Source: Pseudomonas sp. PDNC002 (GTDB taxonomy: Bacteria; Pseudomonadota; Gammaproteobacteria; Pseudomonadales; Pseudomonadaceae). From it: a stretch of 64,000 nt of DNA. Shown one piece after another: positions 46,636 to 58,571 of the stretch. Location of the stretch: positions 4,777,502 through 4,841,501 of the forward strand of contig NZ_CP070356.1 of assembly GCF_016919445.1 (NCBI RefSeq), written 5' to 3'. Below the pieces are notes generated by a model that had not been told where the DNA came from, ran no database searches, and worked only from the letters and a program-made list of their open reading frames with translations. How positions within the stretch are numbered: the stretch's first letter is position 1; each line of letters starts with the position of its first letter. Made by a program: the position numbers and the translations under genes.

Positions 46636-46930
46636 CACCGGCGCCGGCCTTGCCGGCGGGTCGCGGATAAGATCCGCTCCTACAGGGTGAGTCCGGCACG
46701 GCCAATGGTCGTGCGCCACCTGGGGTGCTCGGGGGTCTTCCCCGGGGGCTCGGGGTCTTCCCGGGGCGGGTCTTCGTAGGAGCGGACCTTGTCCGCGAAA
46801 TCCATCGCGAAGGAATCCATTCCAACCGGGAAACACCAGTGCATCGCGCCTGCAGATTCGCCGAAGCCTTCGGCGCCTGATTCCTTGCCCTGCCCATCCC
46901 AAACATGACCCTCCCTAGCATGGGCAATCC
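46636..46930. repeat. Intergenic block with REPs and GC-rich direct repeats
   Basis: Half REP elements lie at 46660-46685 and 46775-46799. Between them GGGTCTTCCCCGGGG-type words repeat three times in about 50 bases (46735-46773). No gene is seen. The promoter region of the organosulfur island follows directly. Confidence 0.65.
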
Positions 46931-46942
46931 CTGCTCCGGCAC

Positions 46943-46958
46943 TGTTGCTCCAGCAACA
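46943..46958. promoter_or_regulatory. Palindromic enhancer-like site, TGTTGC-N4-GCAACA
   Basis: A perfect inverted repeat TGTTGC-TCCA-GCAACA, about 85 bases upstream of the sigma-54 type promoter at 47044. Spacing and form suit an enhancer-binding-protein site; further CAACA / TGTTG half-sites follow at about 46966 and 46997. Confidence 0.6.
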
Positions 46959-47043
46959 CACGCCCAACACTTTGCTGTTTGCCCAGCGCCTAAACTGTTG
47001 GACAAAAACATCAAACCGTTGATTTATAAGATATTTCAATTCC

Positions 47044-47057
47044 GGCACAGCTTGTGC
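47044..47057 (+). promoter_or_regulatory. Sigma-54 (-24/-12) promoter of the organosulfur island
   Basis: CGGCAC-AGCTT-GTGCA: the invariant GG (47044-47045) and GC (47056-47057) are exactly ten bases apart, and the flanking bases fit TGGCAC-N5-TTGCA at most positions. Transcription would start near 47069, about 54 bases before the first ATG. Sulfone use in P. putida is known to need RpoN with the activator SfnR. Confidence 0.65.
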
Positions 47058-47122
47058 AATGACCTGGACAGACAGGCCCGAACACCGGGCCGATTCATCT
47101 GCCCCGAGGTCGCTGTACTGCC

Positions 47123-55824: not shown

Positions 55825-56622
55825 ATGCATGCACGCTTCAAGCTCACCCTCGGCCTCTCGCTGAGCCTCCTCGCCGCCGGCCTCGCCCAGGCCGCCGACA
55901 CCCTGCGCCTGGGCACCACTGCCGCCTTCGCTCCACCGCTGGAAGTGGCAGTGAAGGAAGCCGCCGCACAAGGCCTGAAAGTCGAACTGGTGGAGTTCAC
56001 CGACTGGAACGCGCCGAACATCACCCTCGACCACGGCGACATCGACGCCAACTACTTCCAGCACACGCCCTTCCTGGAGAACGCCAACCGCGAGGGCGGC
56101 CTGCACCTGAAGGCGTTCGCGCCGGGGATCATCAACAACGTCGGTCTCTACTCGACCAAGTACAAGGCCATCGCCGACCTGCCCGACGGCGCCAAGGTCG
56201 CCATCGCCAACGACCCGATCAATGGCGGTCGTGGGCTGCAGCTGCTGCAGAAGGCCGGGCTGCTCAAGCTCAAGGATGGCGTGGGCTACAAGGCGACCCT
56301 GGACGACATCGTGGCCAACCCGAAAAACATCCAGATCATCGAGCTAGAGGCCGTGCAACTGGTGCGCGCGCTGGACGACGTCGACCTGGCCCAGGGCTAT
56401 CCGCACTACATCCGCCTGGCCGGGACCATCGATCCGAACAGCGCGCTGTTGTTCGATGGCATCGAGAACAAGGAGTACGTCATCCAGTTCGTCACCCGCG
56501 ATGACTACAAGGACCCGGACGGCCGGCTGAAGAAGTTCGTCGATCTCTACCAGCATTCGCCGCAGGTCCGCGCCGCGCTGGACAAGGCCCACGGCTCGCT
56601 CTACCAGCCGGGCTGGCAGTAA
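55825..56622 (+). CDS. MetQ/NlpA-family substrate-binding protein (2)
   Basis: A 265-residue periplasmic protein with signal peptide (LGLSLSLLAAGLAQA) and no lipobox Cys. TDWNAPNITLDHGDIDANYF and GLYSTKYKAIADLPDGAKVA are family motifs. It is quite different from the first MetQ copy (AFAPPLEVAVKEAAA versus VPHAEILEFVKPELA at the same place), so the ligands probably differ. AAGGA lies eight bases upstream; 39 bases after the monooxygenase. Confidence 0.9.
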   Translation: MHARFKLTLGLSLSLLAAGLAQAADTLRLGTTAAFAPPLEVAVKEAAAQGLKVELVEFTDWNAPNITLDHGDIDANYFQHTPFLENANREGGLHLKAFAPGIINNVGLYSTKYKAIADLPDGAKVAIANDPINGGRGLQLLQKAGLLKLKDGVGYKATLDDIVANPKNIQIIELEAVQLVRALDDVDLAQGYPHYIRLAGTIDPNSALLFDGIENKEYVIQFVTRDDYKDPDGRLKKFVDLYQHSPQVRAALDKAHGSLYQPGWQ

Positions 56623-56689
56623 GCGCGCCGACGTTCATCGGTAAGGGTAAATGTCTTCTTCTGCGAAGCCGAGGCGGAGCTTTTTCCCT

Positions 56690-56837
56690 CTCCCCAGCCC
56701 TCTCCCTGAAGGGAGAGGGGGCCGTCCGATGCTAGCGGATACTGCAGCTCCCCCTGAACAGCCAGCTTGCTCCGTGCTATCCGGCCACACCGAACCAGTC
56801 CCCTCTCCCTTCAGGGAGAGGGCTAGGGAGAGGGCAG
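56690..56837. repeat. CCCTCTCCC repeat block before metN
   Basis: Two palindromes CCCTCTCCC-TGAA/TTCA-GGGAGAGGG at about 56698 and 56801 flank an unrelated 80-base interior, with GGGCCGTCC words as in the other blocks. Lies between the second MetQ gene and the ATPase gene. Confidence 0.75.
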
Positions 56838-56872
56838 CCAGCCTTCTCCGATCTCAAGAACAGGCCCCCACC

Positions 56873-57934
56873 ATGGTCAGCTTCAACCGCAACCTCGAAC
56901 TCGCCACCCAGCACATCGCCCTGCGCGGGCTGGGCAAGACCTACGCCGGCCACCACGGCCCGGTGGAGGCGCTCAGCGATATCGAACTCTCCGTCCGCCG
57001 TGGCGAAGTGTTCGGCATCATCGGCCGCAGCGGCGCCGGCAAGAGCTCGCTGATCCGCACCCTCAACCGCCTGGAAAAACCCAGCGTCGGCCAAGTGCTG
57101 ATCGACGGCGAGGACATCGGCGCCTTCGACGCCCAGCAACTGGTCGGCCTGCGCCGCCGGGTCGGCATGATCTTCCAGCACTTCAACCTGATGTCGGCCA
57201 AGACAGTAGCGCAGAACATCGCCCTGCCGCTGCGCGTGGCCGGCGTGCCCAAGGCGCGCATCGCCGAGCGGGTAGACGAACTGCTGCAGCTCGTGGGACT
57301 GGAAGACAAGCGCCATGCCTACCCGGCACAACTCTCCGGCGGCCAGAAACAGCGCGTCGGCATCGCCCGCGCGCTGGTGCACCAGCCGGAAATCCTGCTC
57401 TGCGACGAGGCCACCTCGGCGCTGGACCCGGAGAGCACCCAGGCCATCCTCGCCCTGCTGCGCGACATCAATCGTCGCCTGGGCCTGACCATCGTGCTGA
57501 TCACCCACGAGATGGCGGTGATCCGCGAAATCTGCGACCGCGTGGTGGTGCTCGAACGTGGGCGCATCGTCGAACAGGGCGATGTCTGGGAAGTCTTCGG
57601 CAACCCGCAGCACGAAGTCAGCCGCACCCTGCTCGGCTCGCTACAGCAGCACCTGCCACCAGACCTGCTGGCGCGCCTGGAACATCCGTCGGACAACGAA
57701 GTCATTCTCGACCTGCACTACACCGGCGTGCGCGAACAGGAACCCGACCTGCTGGCCATCGCCCAGGCCCTGGGCAACCGCGTCAGCCTGCTGCATGGCG
57801 GTATCGAGCGCATCCAGGGCCGCGCCCTCGGCCGGCTGCTGCTGAGTGTCGCCGCGCCTGCCTCCACGGCTCCCGAACTGCTCGAACGTGCCCGCGATGT
57901 CGCCGATCGCCTGGAGGTGCTCACCCATGCCTGA
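56873..57934 (+). CDS. MetN-like ABC transporter ATP-binding protein with NIL domain
   Basis: A 353-residue ATPase. Walker [11 protein letters not shown]-loop FQHFN, signature [10 protein letters not shown], Walker [13 protein letters not shown] and the ITHEM H-loop are intact. Residues about 275-345 form the NIL regulatory domain that in MetN senses internal ligand ([19 protein letters not shown]). The open frame extends to 56651 only across repeats; ATG 56873 gives the normal start. It is the only ATPase for two MetI permeases in the island. Confidence 0.92.
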
Positions 57935-58571
57935 TCGCTTGCTGCAAGGTCTGCTCGACACCCTGCTGATGATCGGCGCGTCCTCGGCCATCGTCTTGCT
58001 GGTGGGCATTCCGCTGGCCCTGGTGCTGGTCACCACTGGGTCCGGCGGGATCTTCCAGGCGCGCCTGGTCAACCAGGGTCTGGGCAGCGTGGTCAACGTG
58101 CTGCGCTCGATCCCCTTCCTGATCCTGATGGTGGCGCTGATCCCCTTCACCCGCCTGATCGTCGGCACCAGCTACGGCGTATGGGCGGCCGTGGTGCCGC
58201 TGACCATCGCCGCCACGCCGTTCTTCGCGCGCATCGCCGAGGTCAGCCTGCGCGAGGTCGACCACGGCCTGATCGAGGCGGCGCAGGCGATGGGCTGCCA
58301 GCCACGGCACATCATCTGGAACGTGCTGCTGCCGGAGGCGCGGCCGGGCATCGTTGCCGGCTTCACCATCACCCTGGTGACCATGATCAACTCCTCGGCC
58401 ATGGCCGGCGCCATCGGTGCCGGCGGCCTGGGCGATCTCGCGTATCGCTATGGCTACCAGCGCTTCGACACCCAGGTGATGCTCACCGTGATCATCCTGC
58501 TGGTGGCCCTGGTGACGCTGATCCAGTTCGGCGGCGATCGCCTGGCGCGCTGGCTCAACAAGCGCCTGTGA
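57927..58571 (+). CDS. MetI-like ABC transporter permease (2)
   Basis: A 214-residue inner-membrane permease. [20 protein letters not shown] and [20 protein letters not shown] (EAA loop) are MetI-type, ending [20 protein letters not shown]. The start ATGCCTGA overlaps the metN stop by eight bases. It closely parallels the first MetI copy, which supports the idea that one MetN serves both. Last gene of the organosulfur island. Confidence 0.92.

What the first reader, a model, noticed from the sequence alone, without database searches (positions are those of the whole stretch)
46930..58571. Two-module organosulfur scavenging island with three SfnB-type, two NtaA-type enzymes and split MetQNI transport
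Ten plus-strand genes in 11.5 kb all belong to families tied to sulfur-limited growth: SfnB-type oxidoreductases (47123, 51540, 52785), NtaA/SnaA/DszA-type monooxygenases (48357, 54388), MetQ proteins (50522, 55825), MetI permeases (49727, 57927) and one MetN (56873). Module 1 reads SfnB-NtaA-MetI-MetQ and module 2 SfnB-SfnB-NtaA-MetQ-MetN-MetI. Sequence divergence between the paralogues suggests two or more different substrates rather than recent duplication. No NAD(P)H:FMN reductase and no regulator are encoded in the island. The substrate specificity is undescribed as far as I can tell.
Basis: partly seen in the sequence, partly recalled or inferred. Interest (0 to 1): 0.7.

Follow-up and report, generated by a model that had tools for sequence, protein, structure and literature searches.

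The report
Fused two-module organosulfur scavenging operon
Ten neighbouring Pseudomonas genes appear to import two unidentified sulfur compounds and cut the sulfur out of them when sulfate is scarce; the parts are known enzyme and transporter families, but the importers' binding sites look remade for something other than methionine.

Summary
In detail: ten plus-strand genes, all in the stated families. The interpretation (two sulfur-scavenging modules with different substrates) is well supported by sequence and can be extended. (1) Each module also occurs alone with its own MetN. In this lineage they are joined, one MetN serves two MetI/MetQ pairs, and no activator-type promoter was found before module 2. 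(2) Upstream of SfnB1 lie a dyad TGTTGC-N4-GCAACA and, 100 bp on, a sigma54-like promoter. The perfect dyad occurs at four places in the 6.39 Mb genome (0.2 expected): before sfnG, msuE, an SsuD-type gene and this island. This predicts control by an SfnR-type activator. The FMN reductase MsuE and such a regulator lie about 80 kb away. (3) Neither island MetQ keeps the methionine-binding asparagines N213/N238; the genome's other two MetQ proteins do. The imported compounds are probably not methionine. (4) NtaA1 and NtaA2 differ by clade-fixed pocket residues. Likely mechanism: import, S-oxygenation (SfnB), C-S cleavage (NtaA), then MsuC/MsuD to sulfite. Substrates are unknown and no function was tested. 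New variant of a known kind: the SfnR-type sulfate-starvation response.

The parts
46943..46958 (.). Dyad TGTTGCTCCAGCAACA (TGTTGC-N4-GCAACA), candidate binding site of an SfnR-type sigma54 activator
   Evidence: Only match within 1 mismatch of the dyad in the window (the others listed have 2 mismatches); one of 4 perfect places in the 6.39 Mb genome; perfect in 9 of 9 other loci with both modules; expected 0.2 per genome.
47043..47058 (+). Sigma54-like -24/-12 site CGGCACAGCTTGTGCA (GG-N10-GC), 100 bp after the dyad start, 80 bp before the SfnB1 ATG
   Evidence: identical 16-mer in 11 of the 12 aligned same-genus loci, one substitution in L127; stands in a conserved block while sequence further upstream is unalignable.
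47123..48346 (+). SfnB1 (module 1): acyl-CoA-dehydrogenase-fold FMNH2 monooxygenase, predicted S-oxygenase
   Evidence: TIGR04022 632 bits; DszC and MsuC are the best PDB matches.
48357..49730 (+). NtaA1 (module 1): luciferase-like NtaA/DmoA-family monooxygenase, predicted C-S bond cleaving
   Evidence: TIGR03860 564 bits; best PDB match DmoA 6ak1 531 bits; 51.5% identical to DmoA, 52.0% to LadA.
49727..50395 (+). MetI1 (module 1): MetI-type ABC permease
   Evidence: 209.6 bits on the MetI model, cut-off 212; overlaps NtaA1 by 4 bp.
50522..51292 (+). MetQ1 (module 1): MetQ-family binding protein with a changed ligand site
   Evidence: PF03180; ligand positions F Y Y F R F E against canonical Y F H Y R N N, 17 of 17 distinct sequences.
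51540..52775 (+). SfnB2 (module 2): SfnB-family monooxygenase, own clade
   Evidence: TIGR04022 580 bits; SfnB2 clade 99 SH-aLRT in a quick tree.
52785..54002 (+). SfnB3 (module 2): SfnB-family monooxygenase, own clade
   Evidence: TIGR04022 630 bits; SfnB3 clade 97 SH-aLRT.
54388..55785 (+). NtaA2 (module 2): NtaA/DmoA-family monooxygenase, predicted C-S bond cleaving
   Evidence: TIGR03860 551 bits; 52.2% identical to LadA, 47.0% to DmoA.
55825..56622 (+). MetQ2 (module 2): MetQ-family binding protein with a changed ligand site
   Evidence: PF03180; ligand positions W F H F R Y I in 98 of 101 distinct sequences.
56873..57934 (+). MetN-type ATPase with C-terminal NIL domain; the only MetN of the island
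   Evidence: ABC_tran and NIL domains; 336 bits, below the MetN equivalog cut-off 499.7.
57927..58571 (+). MetI2 (module 2): MetI-type ABC permease
   Evidence: 224.2 bits, cut-off 212; overlaps MetN by 8 bp.

Best explanation
This is a sulfate-starvation operon made of two joined organosulfur modules. Each module pairs a MetQ/MetI importer with an SfnB-type S-oxygenase (one in module 1, two in module 2) and an NtaA/DmoA-type C-S bond-cleaving monooxygenase. An SfnR-type sigma54 activator binds the dyad at 46943-46958 and turns on the promoter at 47043-47058, so the whole row is read together with sfnG, msuEDC-sfnR and an SsuD-type gene elsewhere in the genome. Two different organosulfur compounds, probably not methionine, are imported through MetQ1-MetI1 and MetQ2-MetI2 with one shared MetN. 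SfnB oxygenates the sulfur (sulfide to sulfoxide/sulfone), NtaA cleaves the C-S bond, and the released sulfinate/sulfonate goes to MsuC and MsuD/SsuD, giving sulfite for cysteine synthesis; MsuE supplies FMNH2 to all of them. Shown by sequence: families, gene order, promoter architecture, changed binding sites, presence of the trans partners. Inferred: the chemistry, its order, the regulator's identity, the shared MetN. Unknown: the substrates.
For: Families. Promoter: the perfect dyad occurs at 4 places in the genome (control pattern 1 place; 0.2 expected), and each has a sigma54-like site scoring 9-11 of 11 at 88-103 bp downstream, before an SsuD-type gene, sfnG, msuE and SfnB1 (such a site lies 85-105 bp downstream of 0.6% of positions). 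The 9 other loci with both modules have the perfect dyad with a sigma54-like site at exactly 100 bp. Trans partners: MsuE 265 bits, SfnG 630, SsuD-type 645, a sigma54 activator and an MsuC/DszC-like protein in the cluster. In L057 module 1 lies between MsuE/SfnG genes and an SsuD-type gene, next to a relative of that activator. Chemistry: ACAD-fold relatives Dms1-3 of A. baylyi oxidise DMS to DMSO and DMSO2 with FMNH2 from MsuE and are induced 405-1211 fold on DMS against sulfate (PMC13352529, Results and Discussion read). Not methionine: 0 of 138 distinct island-type MetQ sequences keep N213 or N238, all keep R156; N238A weakens L-Met binding over 10^5-fold (PMC6739813, passages); the genome's other two MetQ proteins keep both asparagines. 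Catalytic columns: N129, W205, R282, H388, H391, D392 (DszC numbering; their importance is recalled) are invariant in 244 of 244 SfnB rows, 240 distinct.
Against: No expression, binding or enzyme data for any of these genes. Most stand-alone module-2 loci lack the dyad: of 95 scored, 3 perfect, 2 with one mismatch (the same contig seen twice), 2 with two, 88 with three or more, which is background-like; so the SfnR link does not hold for module 2 in general. Stand-alone module 1 has mostly degenerate dyads (0 to 4 mismatches), and L053 and L062 lack NtaA1. The generic scan with one mismatch found sigma54-like sites only at chance level and missed this one. In ADP1 no group C enzyme oxidised DMS (PMC13352529), and DMS needs no importer. 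The C-S cleaving role of NtaA1/2 rests on family membership; LadA, equally similar, is named an alkane monooxygenase.
Confidence: 0.65

Rival explanations
1. Methionine (or D-methionine / methionine sulfoxide) scavenging: the MetQ/MetI/MetN parts import methionine compounds, and the oxygenases take the S-methyl group apart.
For: All transporter parts are of the MetNIQ family; R156 is kept; MetQ1 is closest to 4k3f, which keeps the canonical ligand residues.
Against: Both asparagines that hold the amino-acid backbone are gone in 138 of 138 distinct island-type MetQ sequences, while the two MetQ proteins elsewhere in the genome keep them. MetN scores below its equivalog cut-off. A MetQ could evolve another way to bind methionine; E238 of MetQ1 might still hold an amino group.
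Confidence: 0.15
2. Dimethyl sulfide assimilation: SfnB1-3 are Dms-type DMS/DMSO oxygenases feeding SfnG, and NtaA1 is a DmoA-type DMS monooxygenase.
For: SfnB1 is sister (support 81) to a clade holding the A. baylyi gene that most likely is Dms1; NtaA1's best PDB match is DmoA; co-regulation with sfnG and msuE is predicted.
Against: A dedicated importer is not needed for volatile DMS. The module-2 SfnB pair of A. baylyi most likely is ACIAD2064/2065, which was not assayed, rather than Dms1/Dms2 (PMC13352529). NtaA1 and NtaA2 differ from DmoA at Q18 and L367 and NtaA2 at five further listed positions. No group C enzyme of ADP1 oxidised DMS.
Confidence: 0.12
3. S-alkyl-cysteine (mercapturate) salvage like CmoO/CmoJ or YxeK of Bacillus subtilis: an S-substituted cysteine is imported, oxygenated and dealkylated.
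For: Same enzymatic logic (S-oxygenation, then C-S cleavage by an NtaA-family enzyme; PMC10863075, part 1 of 3 read). In A. baylyi a glutathione-S-transferase-like gene lies beside module 2, and in L128 a D-cysteine desulfhydrase and an amino-acid-type ABC transporter lie upstream.
Against: No N-acetyltransferase or deacetylase among the ten genes. CmoJ (YtnJ) is a much weaker match than DmoA or LadA: 223 against 531 and 488 bits. MetQ2 has lost the amino-group-binding asparagines.
Confidence: 0.08

Closest known systems
sfnAB / SfnR regulon of Pseudomonas putida
   Same: An SfnA-SfnB pair with predicted ABC transporters in the sfn region; SfnR is a sigma54-dependent activator of sfnFG, and sfnA has a sigma54-dependent activator (PMC8234197, passages and titles in its reference list).
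   Different: Called uncharacterised in that 2021 paper. Here two complete modules are joined and lie about 80 kb from the sfn/msu cluster. I did not obtain the P. putida sequences, so identity with sfnAB was not tested.
DMS assimilation enzymes Dms1-3 of Acinetobacter baylyi ADP1
   Same: Same fold group (D), FMNH2 from MsuE, sulfate-starvation response (PMC13352529). One gene likely to be Dms1 is in the SfnB family, in the clade sister to SfnB1.
   Different: SfnB2 and SfnB3 are other clades; their A. baylyi orthologues probably are ACIAD2064/2065, reported as inclusion bodies and not assayed. This mapping is by position and count, with rpoB = ACIAD0307 and the total number of tags recalled.
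DmoA (Hyphomicrobium DMS monooxygenase) and LadA
   Same: NtaA1 and NtaA2 are 47-52% identical to both, about as similar as DmoA and LadA are to each other (52.3%).
   Different: At DmoA positions 18/59/137/138/311/367/368 DmoA has QVSYLLG, NtaA1 LVSYLDG (16 of 16 distinct), NtaA2 IIGYHRY (104 of 104 distinct).
MetNIQ methionine importer
   Same: Same three protein families.
   Different: N213 and N238 replaced (F/E in MetQ1, Y/I in MetQ2); MetN under the equivalog cut-off; one MetN for two MetI/MetQ pairs.

Membership tests
SfnB family (TIGR04022) | Score above the curated cut-off 430.9 | tested here: met
   632, 580, 630 bits.
SfnB family (TIGR04022) | Conserved DszC/MsuC-type active-site columns (importance recalled) | tested here: met
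   N129, W205, R282, H391, D392 invariant in 244 of 244 SfnB rows and shared with MsuC; H388 invariant in SfnB but Q in MsuC; H92 and Y96 of DszC are not kept (Q/N in nearly all SfnB).
SfnB family (TIGR04022) | FMNH2-dependent oxygenation of sulfur | not testable with these tools
   Needs enzyme assay.
NtaA/DmoA subfamily (TIGR03860) | Score above cut-off 279.7 | tested here: met
   564 and 551 bits.
DMS monooxygenase DmoA | Ligand/cofactor positions listed in PMC9259527 (passages) | tested here: not met
   F10, M12, H17, Y63, Q79, Y138, Y158, A227, S230, F245 kept; Q18, G231 and L367 changed in both, and V59, S137, G368 also in NtaA2.
MetNIQ methionine importer | MetQ residues R156, N213, N238 holding the methionine backbone | tested here: not met
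   R156 kept; N213 and N238 lost in 138 of 138 distinct island-type sequences; both kept in the genome's other two MetQ proteins.
MetNIQ methionine importer | MetN equivalog TIGR02314, cut-off 499.7 | tested here: not met
   336 bits.
SfnR/sigma54 sulfate-starvation regulon | Same operator and sigma54 promoter architecture as sfnG and msuE of the same genome | tested here: met
   4 of 4 perfect dyads with sigma54-like site at 88-103 bp.
SfnR/sigma54 sulfate-starvation regulon | Activation by SfnR under sulfate starvation | not testable with these tools
   Needs expression data; the binding of SfnR to this dyad was not found in the papers seen.
Dms1/Dms2 of A. baylyi | Orthology of SfnB2/SfnB3 to ACIAD0427/0428 | tested here: inconclusive
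   Position and count favour ACIAD2064/2065 instead, but locus tags could not be read directly.
CmoO/CmoJ S-alkylcysteine salvage | N-acetyltransferase and deacetylase with the oxygenases | tested here: not met
   None among the ten island genes; the rest of the genome was not searched for them.

The most novel reading that the evidence does not exclude
The MetQ family has given rise to two importers for sulfur compounds other than methionine, each wired to its own S-oxygenase/C-S monooxygenase pair: module 2 for an anionic, non-amino-acid organosulfur compound (MetQ2 keeps R156 but has Y213/I238; NtaA2 has gained R367), module 1 for a compound with an extra positive charge (MetQ1 has E238; NtaA1 has D367). 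Module 2 would then be a widespread but unassayed sulfur route of Acinetobacter, Pseudomonas and Pantoea, and its tandem SfnB pair two different oxygenation steps.
Probability: 0.35. Interest if true: 0.65.

Novelty: new variant of a known kind. Interest (0 to 1): 0.5.

Why it matters
If right, it adds at least two organosulfur compounds to what soil and plant bacteria can use as sulfur source, names the importers for them, and gives a short list of testable ligands. Module 2 is conserved in order in 79 of 80 named loci from Acinetobacter-type, Pseudomonas and Pantoea genomes (these were picked as best matches to SfnB3), yet its SfnB pair probably is the one that a 2026 enzyme survey could not purify. 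The dyad gives an operator by which other members of the regulon can be listed in Pseudomonas genomes. It also warns that 'methionine transporter' labels on such genes are probably wrong.

Tried and rejected
Sigma54 scan with one mismatch over the window gave 7 hits where 6.7 are expected: uninformative; the promoter was found only by comparing 12 upstream regions. A scored scan 300 bp upstream of SfnB1/2/3 orthologues was weak on its own (median shuffle fraction 0.1, 0.9 and 0.28).

I first took the module-2 SfnB pair to be Dms1/Dms2 of A. baylyi. Contig positions of dnaA, SsuD and rpoB and the count of seven DszC/SfnB-like genes against five purified plus two insoluble in the paper spoke against it, and I dropped it.

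I first read the MetN tree as showing that the window MetN is module 2's own and that module 1 lost its MetN. A test did not bear this out: a tree joining the island MetN rows with the stand-alone module-1 MetN rows is not rejected (p-AU 0.475). Only its place between MetQ2 and MetI2 favours module-2 origin. For the same reason L046/L047 (module 1 plus MetN, no SfnB2-MetQ2 and no MetI2) may be either a loss or the state before joining.

Promoter of module 2: no dyad within 500 bp upstream of SfnB2 in the window (best 4 mismatches) or in 9 other loci with both modules (2 to 5 mismatches). Other promoter types were looked for only with a sigma-70 scan (0 found, shuffles mean 1.0).

Literature: (DszC residues) found nothing; two searches listed nothing useful beyond the ISME paper; Kouzuma 2008 is not held. 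Structure prediction and fold searches were not used.
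Full report
What is there. Module 1 is SfnB1-NtaA1-MetI1-MetQ1, module 2 SfnB2-SfnB3-NtaA2-MetQ2-MetN-MetI2. The genome is a single contig of 6,393,486 bases, and the window is 4777502-4841501. The three genes above the SfnB cut-off lie in the island, as do two of four above the NtaA/DmoA cut-off. A named relative with the same two-module island at 90-99% protein identity is Pseudomonas sp. 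CAN1 (L127).

The modules are separable. From the places (95 genomes searched; 41 with a match at E 1e-60 or better, 36 over the cut-off) I fetched 40 stretches, not all. By tblastn eight of them hold both modules in the window's order (L043-L045, L048-L050, L081, L082). Module 1 stands alone with a MetN in L051, L053, L057, L059, L060 and L062, of which L053 and L062 lack NtaA1 and L051 has it first and only 65% identical; L080 is cut by the contig end after MetQ1. L046 and L047 have module 1 followed by a MetN 92-94% identical to the window's. Module 2 stands alone in 14 stretches, in L061 and L069 with the transporter genes rearranged. In the 80 named loci, picked as best matches to SfnB3, 79 hold SfnB2-SfnB3-NtaA2-MetQ2-MetN-MetI2 in order, some with a second MetQ; L161 shows only SfnB2-SfnB3-NtaA2. 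They are 38 Acinetobacter or Moraxellaceae, 37 Pseudomonas and 5 Pantoea (titles).

One MetN for two pairs. The island has two MetQ and two MetI but one MetN, which overlaps MetI2 by 8 bp. Stand-alone modules of both kinds carry their own MetN. Which of the two was kept cannot be told from the tree: the careful tree puts the island rows next to a module-2 MetN with weak support (90/52), and joining them with the stand-alone module-1 rows is not rejected (p-AU 0.475).

Old paralogues. In a quick tree of 79 SfnB/DszC-like rows SfnB1 (SH-aLRT 100), SfnB2 (99) and SfnB3 (97) are separate clades, and the SfnB2 and SfnB3 clades each hold Pseudomonas, Acinetobacter and Pantoea rows. The nearest clade to SfnB1 (joined at 81) holds an A. 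baylyi gene.

A regulon by its promoter. Upstream of SfnB1, 12 same-genus loci keep two blocks in otherwise unalignable sequence: around the dyad TGTTGC-N4-GCAACA (46943-46958) and around a sigma54-like site CGGCACAGCTTGTGCA (47043-47058). A search of the whole genome for the perfect dyad gave four places and the reversed control pattern one; 0.2 are expected from base composition. Each of the four has a sigma54-like site at 88, 103, 100 or 100 bp, scoring 11, 10, 10 and 9 of 11, before an SsuD-type gene (607 bits), SfnG (630 bits), MsuE (265 bits) and SfnB1. Other, weaker sites (score 8) also occur near two of the dyads. A site scoring 9 or more lies 85-105 bp downstream of 0.6% of positions in the window and the sfn/msu stretch. 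The sfn/msu cluster also encodes a sigma54 activator without a recognisable receiver domain, an MsuC/DszC-like protein and a second SsuD-type protein. That this activator is SfnR and binds the dyad is inference: PMC8234197 (passages) says that sfnR groups with the msu operon, and its reference list names SfnR as sigma54-dependent activator of sfnFG.

Nine other loci with both modules have the perfect dyad with a site at exactly 100 bp before SfnB1, and none before SfnB2 (2 to 5 mismatches; the window 4). Stand-alone module 2 has the perfect dyad in L055, L058 and L167 and a one-mismatch dyad in L064/L140, each with a sigma54-like site at 99-101 bp; L063 has two mismatches with a site at 99 bp. 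The other module-2 loci are background-like. So in the joined lineage module 2 probably depends on the promoter of module 1, but across genera module 2 is mostly controlled otherwise.

The importers are probably not for methionine. In N. meningitidis MetQ the methionine backbone is held by R156, N213 and N238, and Y81, F98, H100, Y103 pack around the thioether; N238A weakens binding over 10^5-fold (PMC6739813, passages). MetQ1 has F Y Y F R F E at 81/98/100/103/156/213/238 in 17 of 17 distinct sequences; MetQ2 has W F H F R Y I in 98 of 101, with R156 and I238 in 101 of 101; the second MetQ of Acinetobacter-type loci also lacks both asparagines (20 of 20). In the same genome the MetQ at 1353845 keeps all seven canonical residues, and the one at 201952 keeps all but H100 (T), read by eye.

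The C-S monooxygenases differ. Positions come from a list for DmoA in PMC9259527 (passages), except 311, which is recalled from LadA. NtaA1 has L18 V59 S137 Y138 L311 D367 G368 (16 of 16 distinct), NtaA2 I18 I59 G137 Y138 H311 R367 Y368 (104 of 104), DmoA Q V S Y L L G, LadA I V S H H W F (the LadA alignment around 367 is gapped). Fixed opposite charges at 367 and the E238/I238 difference in MetQ are the ground for the bold reading; that these residues touch the substrate is not shown.

What the chemistry probably is. DszC and MsuC, the best PDB matches of SfnB1, add oxygen to sulfur. In A. baylyi ADP1 the group D enzymes Dms1-3 turn DMS into DMSO and DMSO2 with FMNH2 from MsuE; the SfnG-type enzyme (called MsuD there), MsuC and SsuD finish the path to sulfite, and the six genes measured rose 405-3835 fold on DMS against sulfate (PMC13352529; Results, Discussion and passages read). 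No group C enzyme oxidised DMS there. NtaA-family relatives cleave C-S bonds in other pathways (DmoA, DszA, YxeK, CmoJ; PMC10863075, part 1 of 3 read). I therefore propose import, S-oxygenation, C-S cleavage, sulfinate/sulfonate oxidation, sulfite.

Is it already characterised? By contig positions (dnaA, SsuD = ACIAD0036, rpoB) the adjacent pair on contig C2 of the A. baylyi type strain fits ACIAD0427/0428 = Dms1/Dms2. The module-2 pair on C7 then fits ACIAD2064/2065, which the paper reports as inclusion bodies. Seven SfnB/DszC-like genes in that genome match five purified plus two insoluble. rpoB = ACIAD0307 and the number of tags are recalled, and contig order is assumed; I hold this at about 0.85. 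So module 2 appears unassayed.

Verdict. Known families, a known physiological setting and a recognisable regulon; new are the fused architecture, the predicted operator, and the changed binding sites that argue against methionine. Function is inferred throughout.

Noticed in passing
window 51331-51496, 56698-56822 and the gap 54003-54387: The gaps between island genes hold copies of a 22-nt palindrome CCCTCTCCCTGAAGGGAGAGGG, three of them in 72-nt tandem units in 51331-51496; gap lengths differ in a relative (L049), so these look like recent intergenic repeats.
   Followed up: partly
G000:C1:3539477-3539492 (L192): Fourth perfect dyad lies between an SsuD-type gene and a divergent ORF that looks like a serine acetyltransferase (by eye; not searched): a further predicted regulon member.
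   Followed up: partly
L083, L088-L125 (Acinetobacter-type loci): Many module-2 loci of Acinetobacter carry a second MetQ next to the first (20 distinct sequences), also without N213/N238 and mostly Q at position 100: possibly a second ligand.
   Followed up: partly
L128:3363-6939: In a P. fluorescens-type genome a D-cysteine desulfhydrase and amino-acid-type ABC transporter genes lie upstream of module 2.
   Followed up: no
L119:7655-8422: A glutathione-S-transferase-like gene lies divergently beside module 2 in A. baylyi (Pfam GST_N); a similar one in L091 (by eye).
   Followed up: no
L122:2240-8567: In Acinetobacter boissieri an MsuE gene, an SfnG-like ORF (by eye), an NtaA1-like gene and a DszC-like gene lie divergently from module 2.
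   Followed up: partly
SfnB2 clade, DszC positions 131-132: SfnB2 has G at position 131 in 106 of 106 rows and P at 132 in at least 95%, next to the invariant N129, where SfnB1 has LS and SfnB3 mostly LA: a clade-fixed change near the likely active site.
   Followed up: no
window 60763-62685, minus strand: A 640-aa protein with an M60 (enhancin-like) peptidase domain and ricin-type lectin repeats.
   Followed up: no
window 29107-29312 and 23326-23395, minus strand: sucA-II and sucC RNA leaders, in line with a Pseudomonas source.
   Followed up: no
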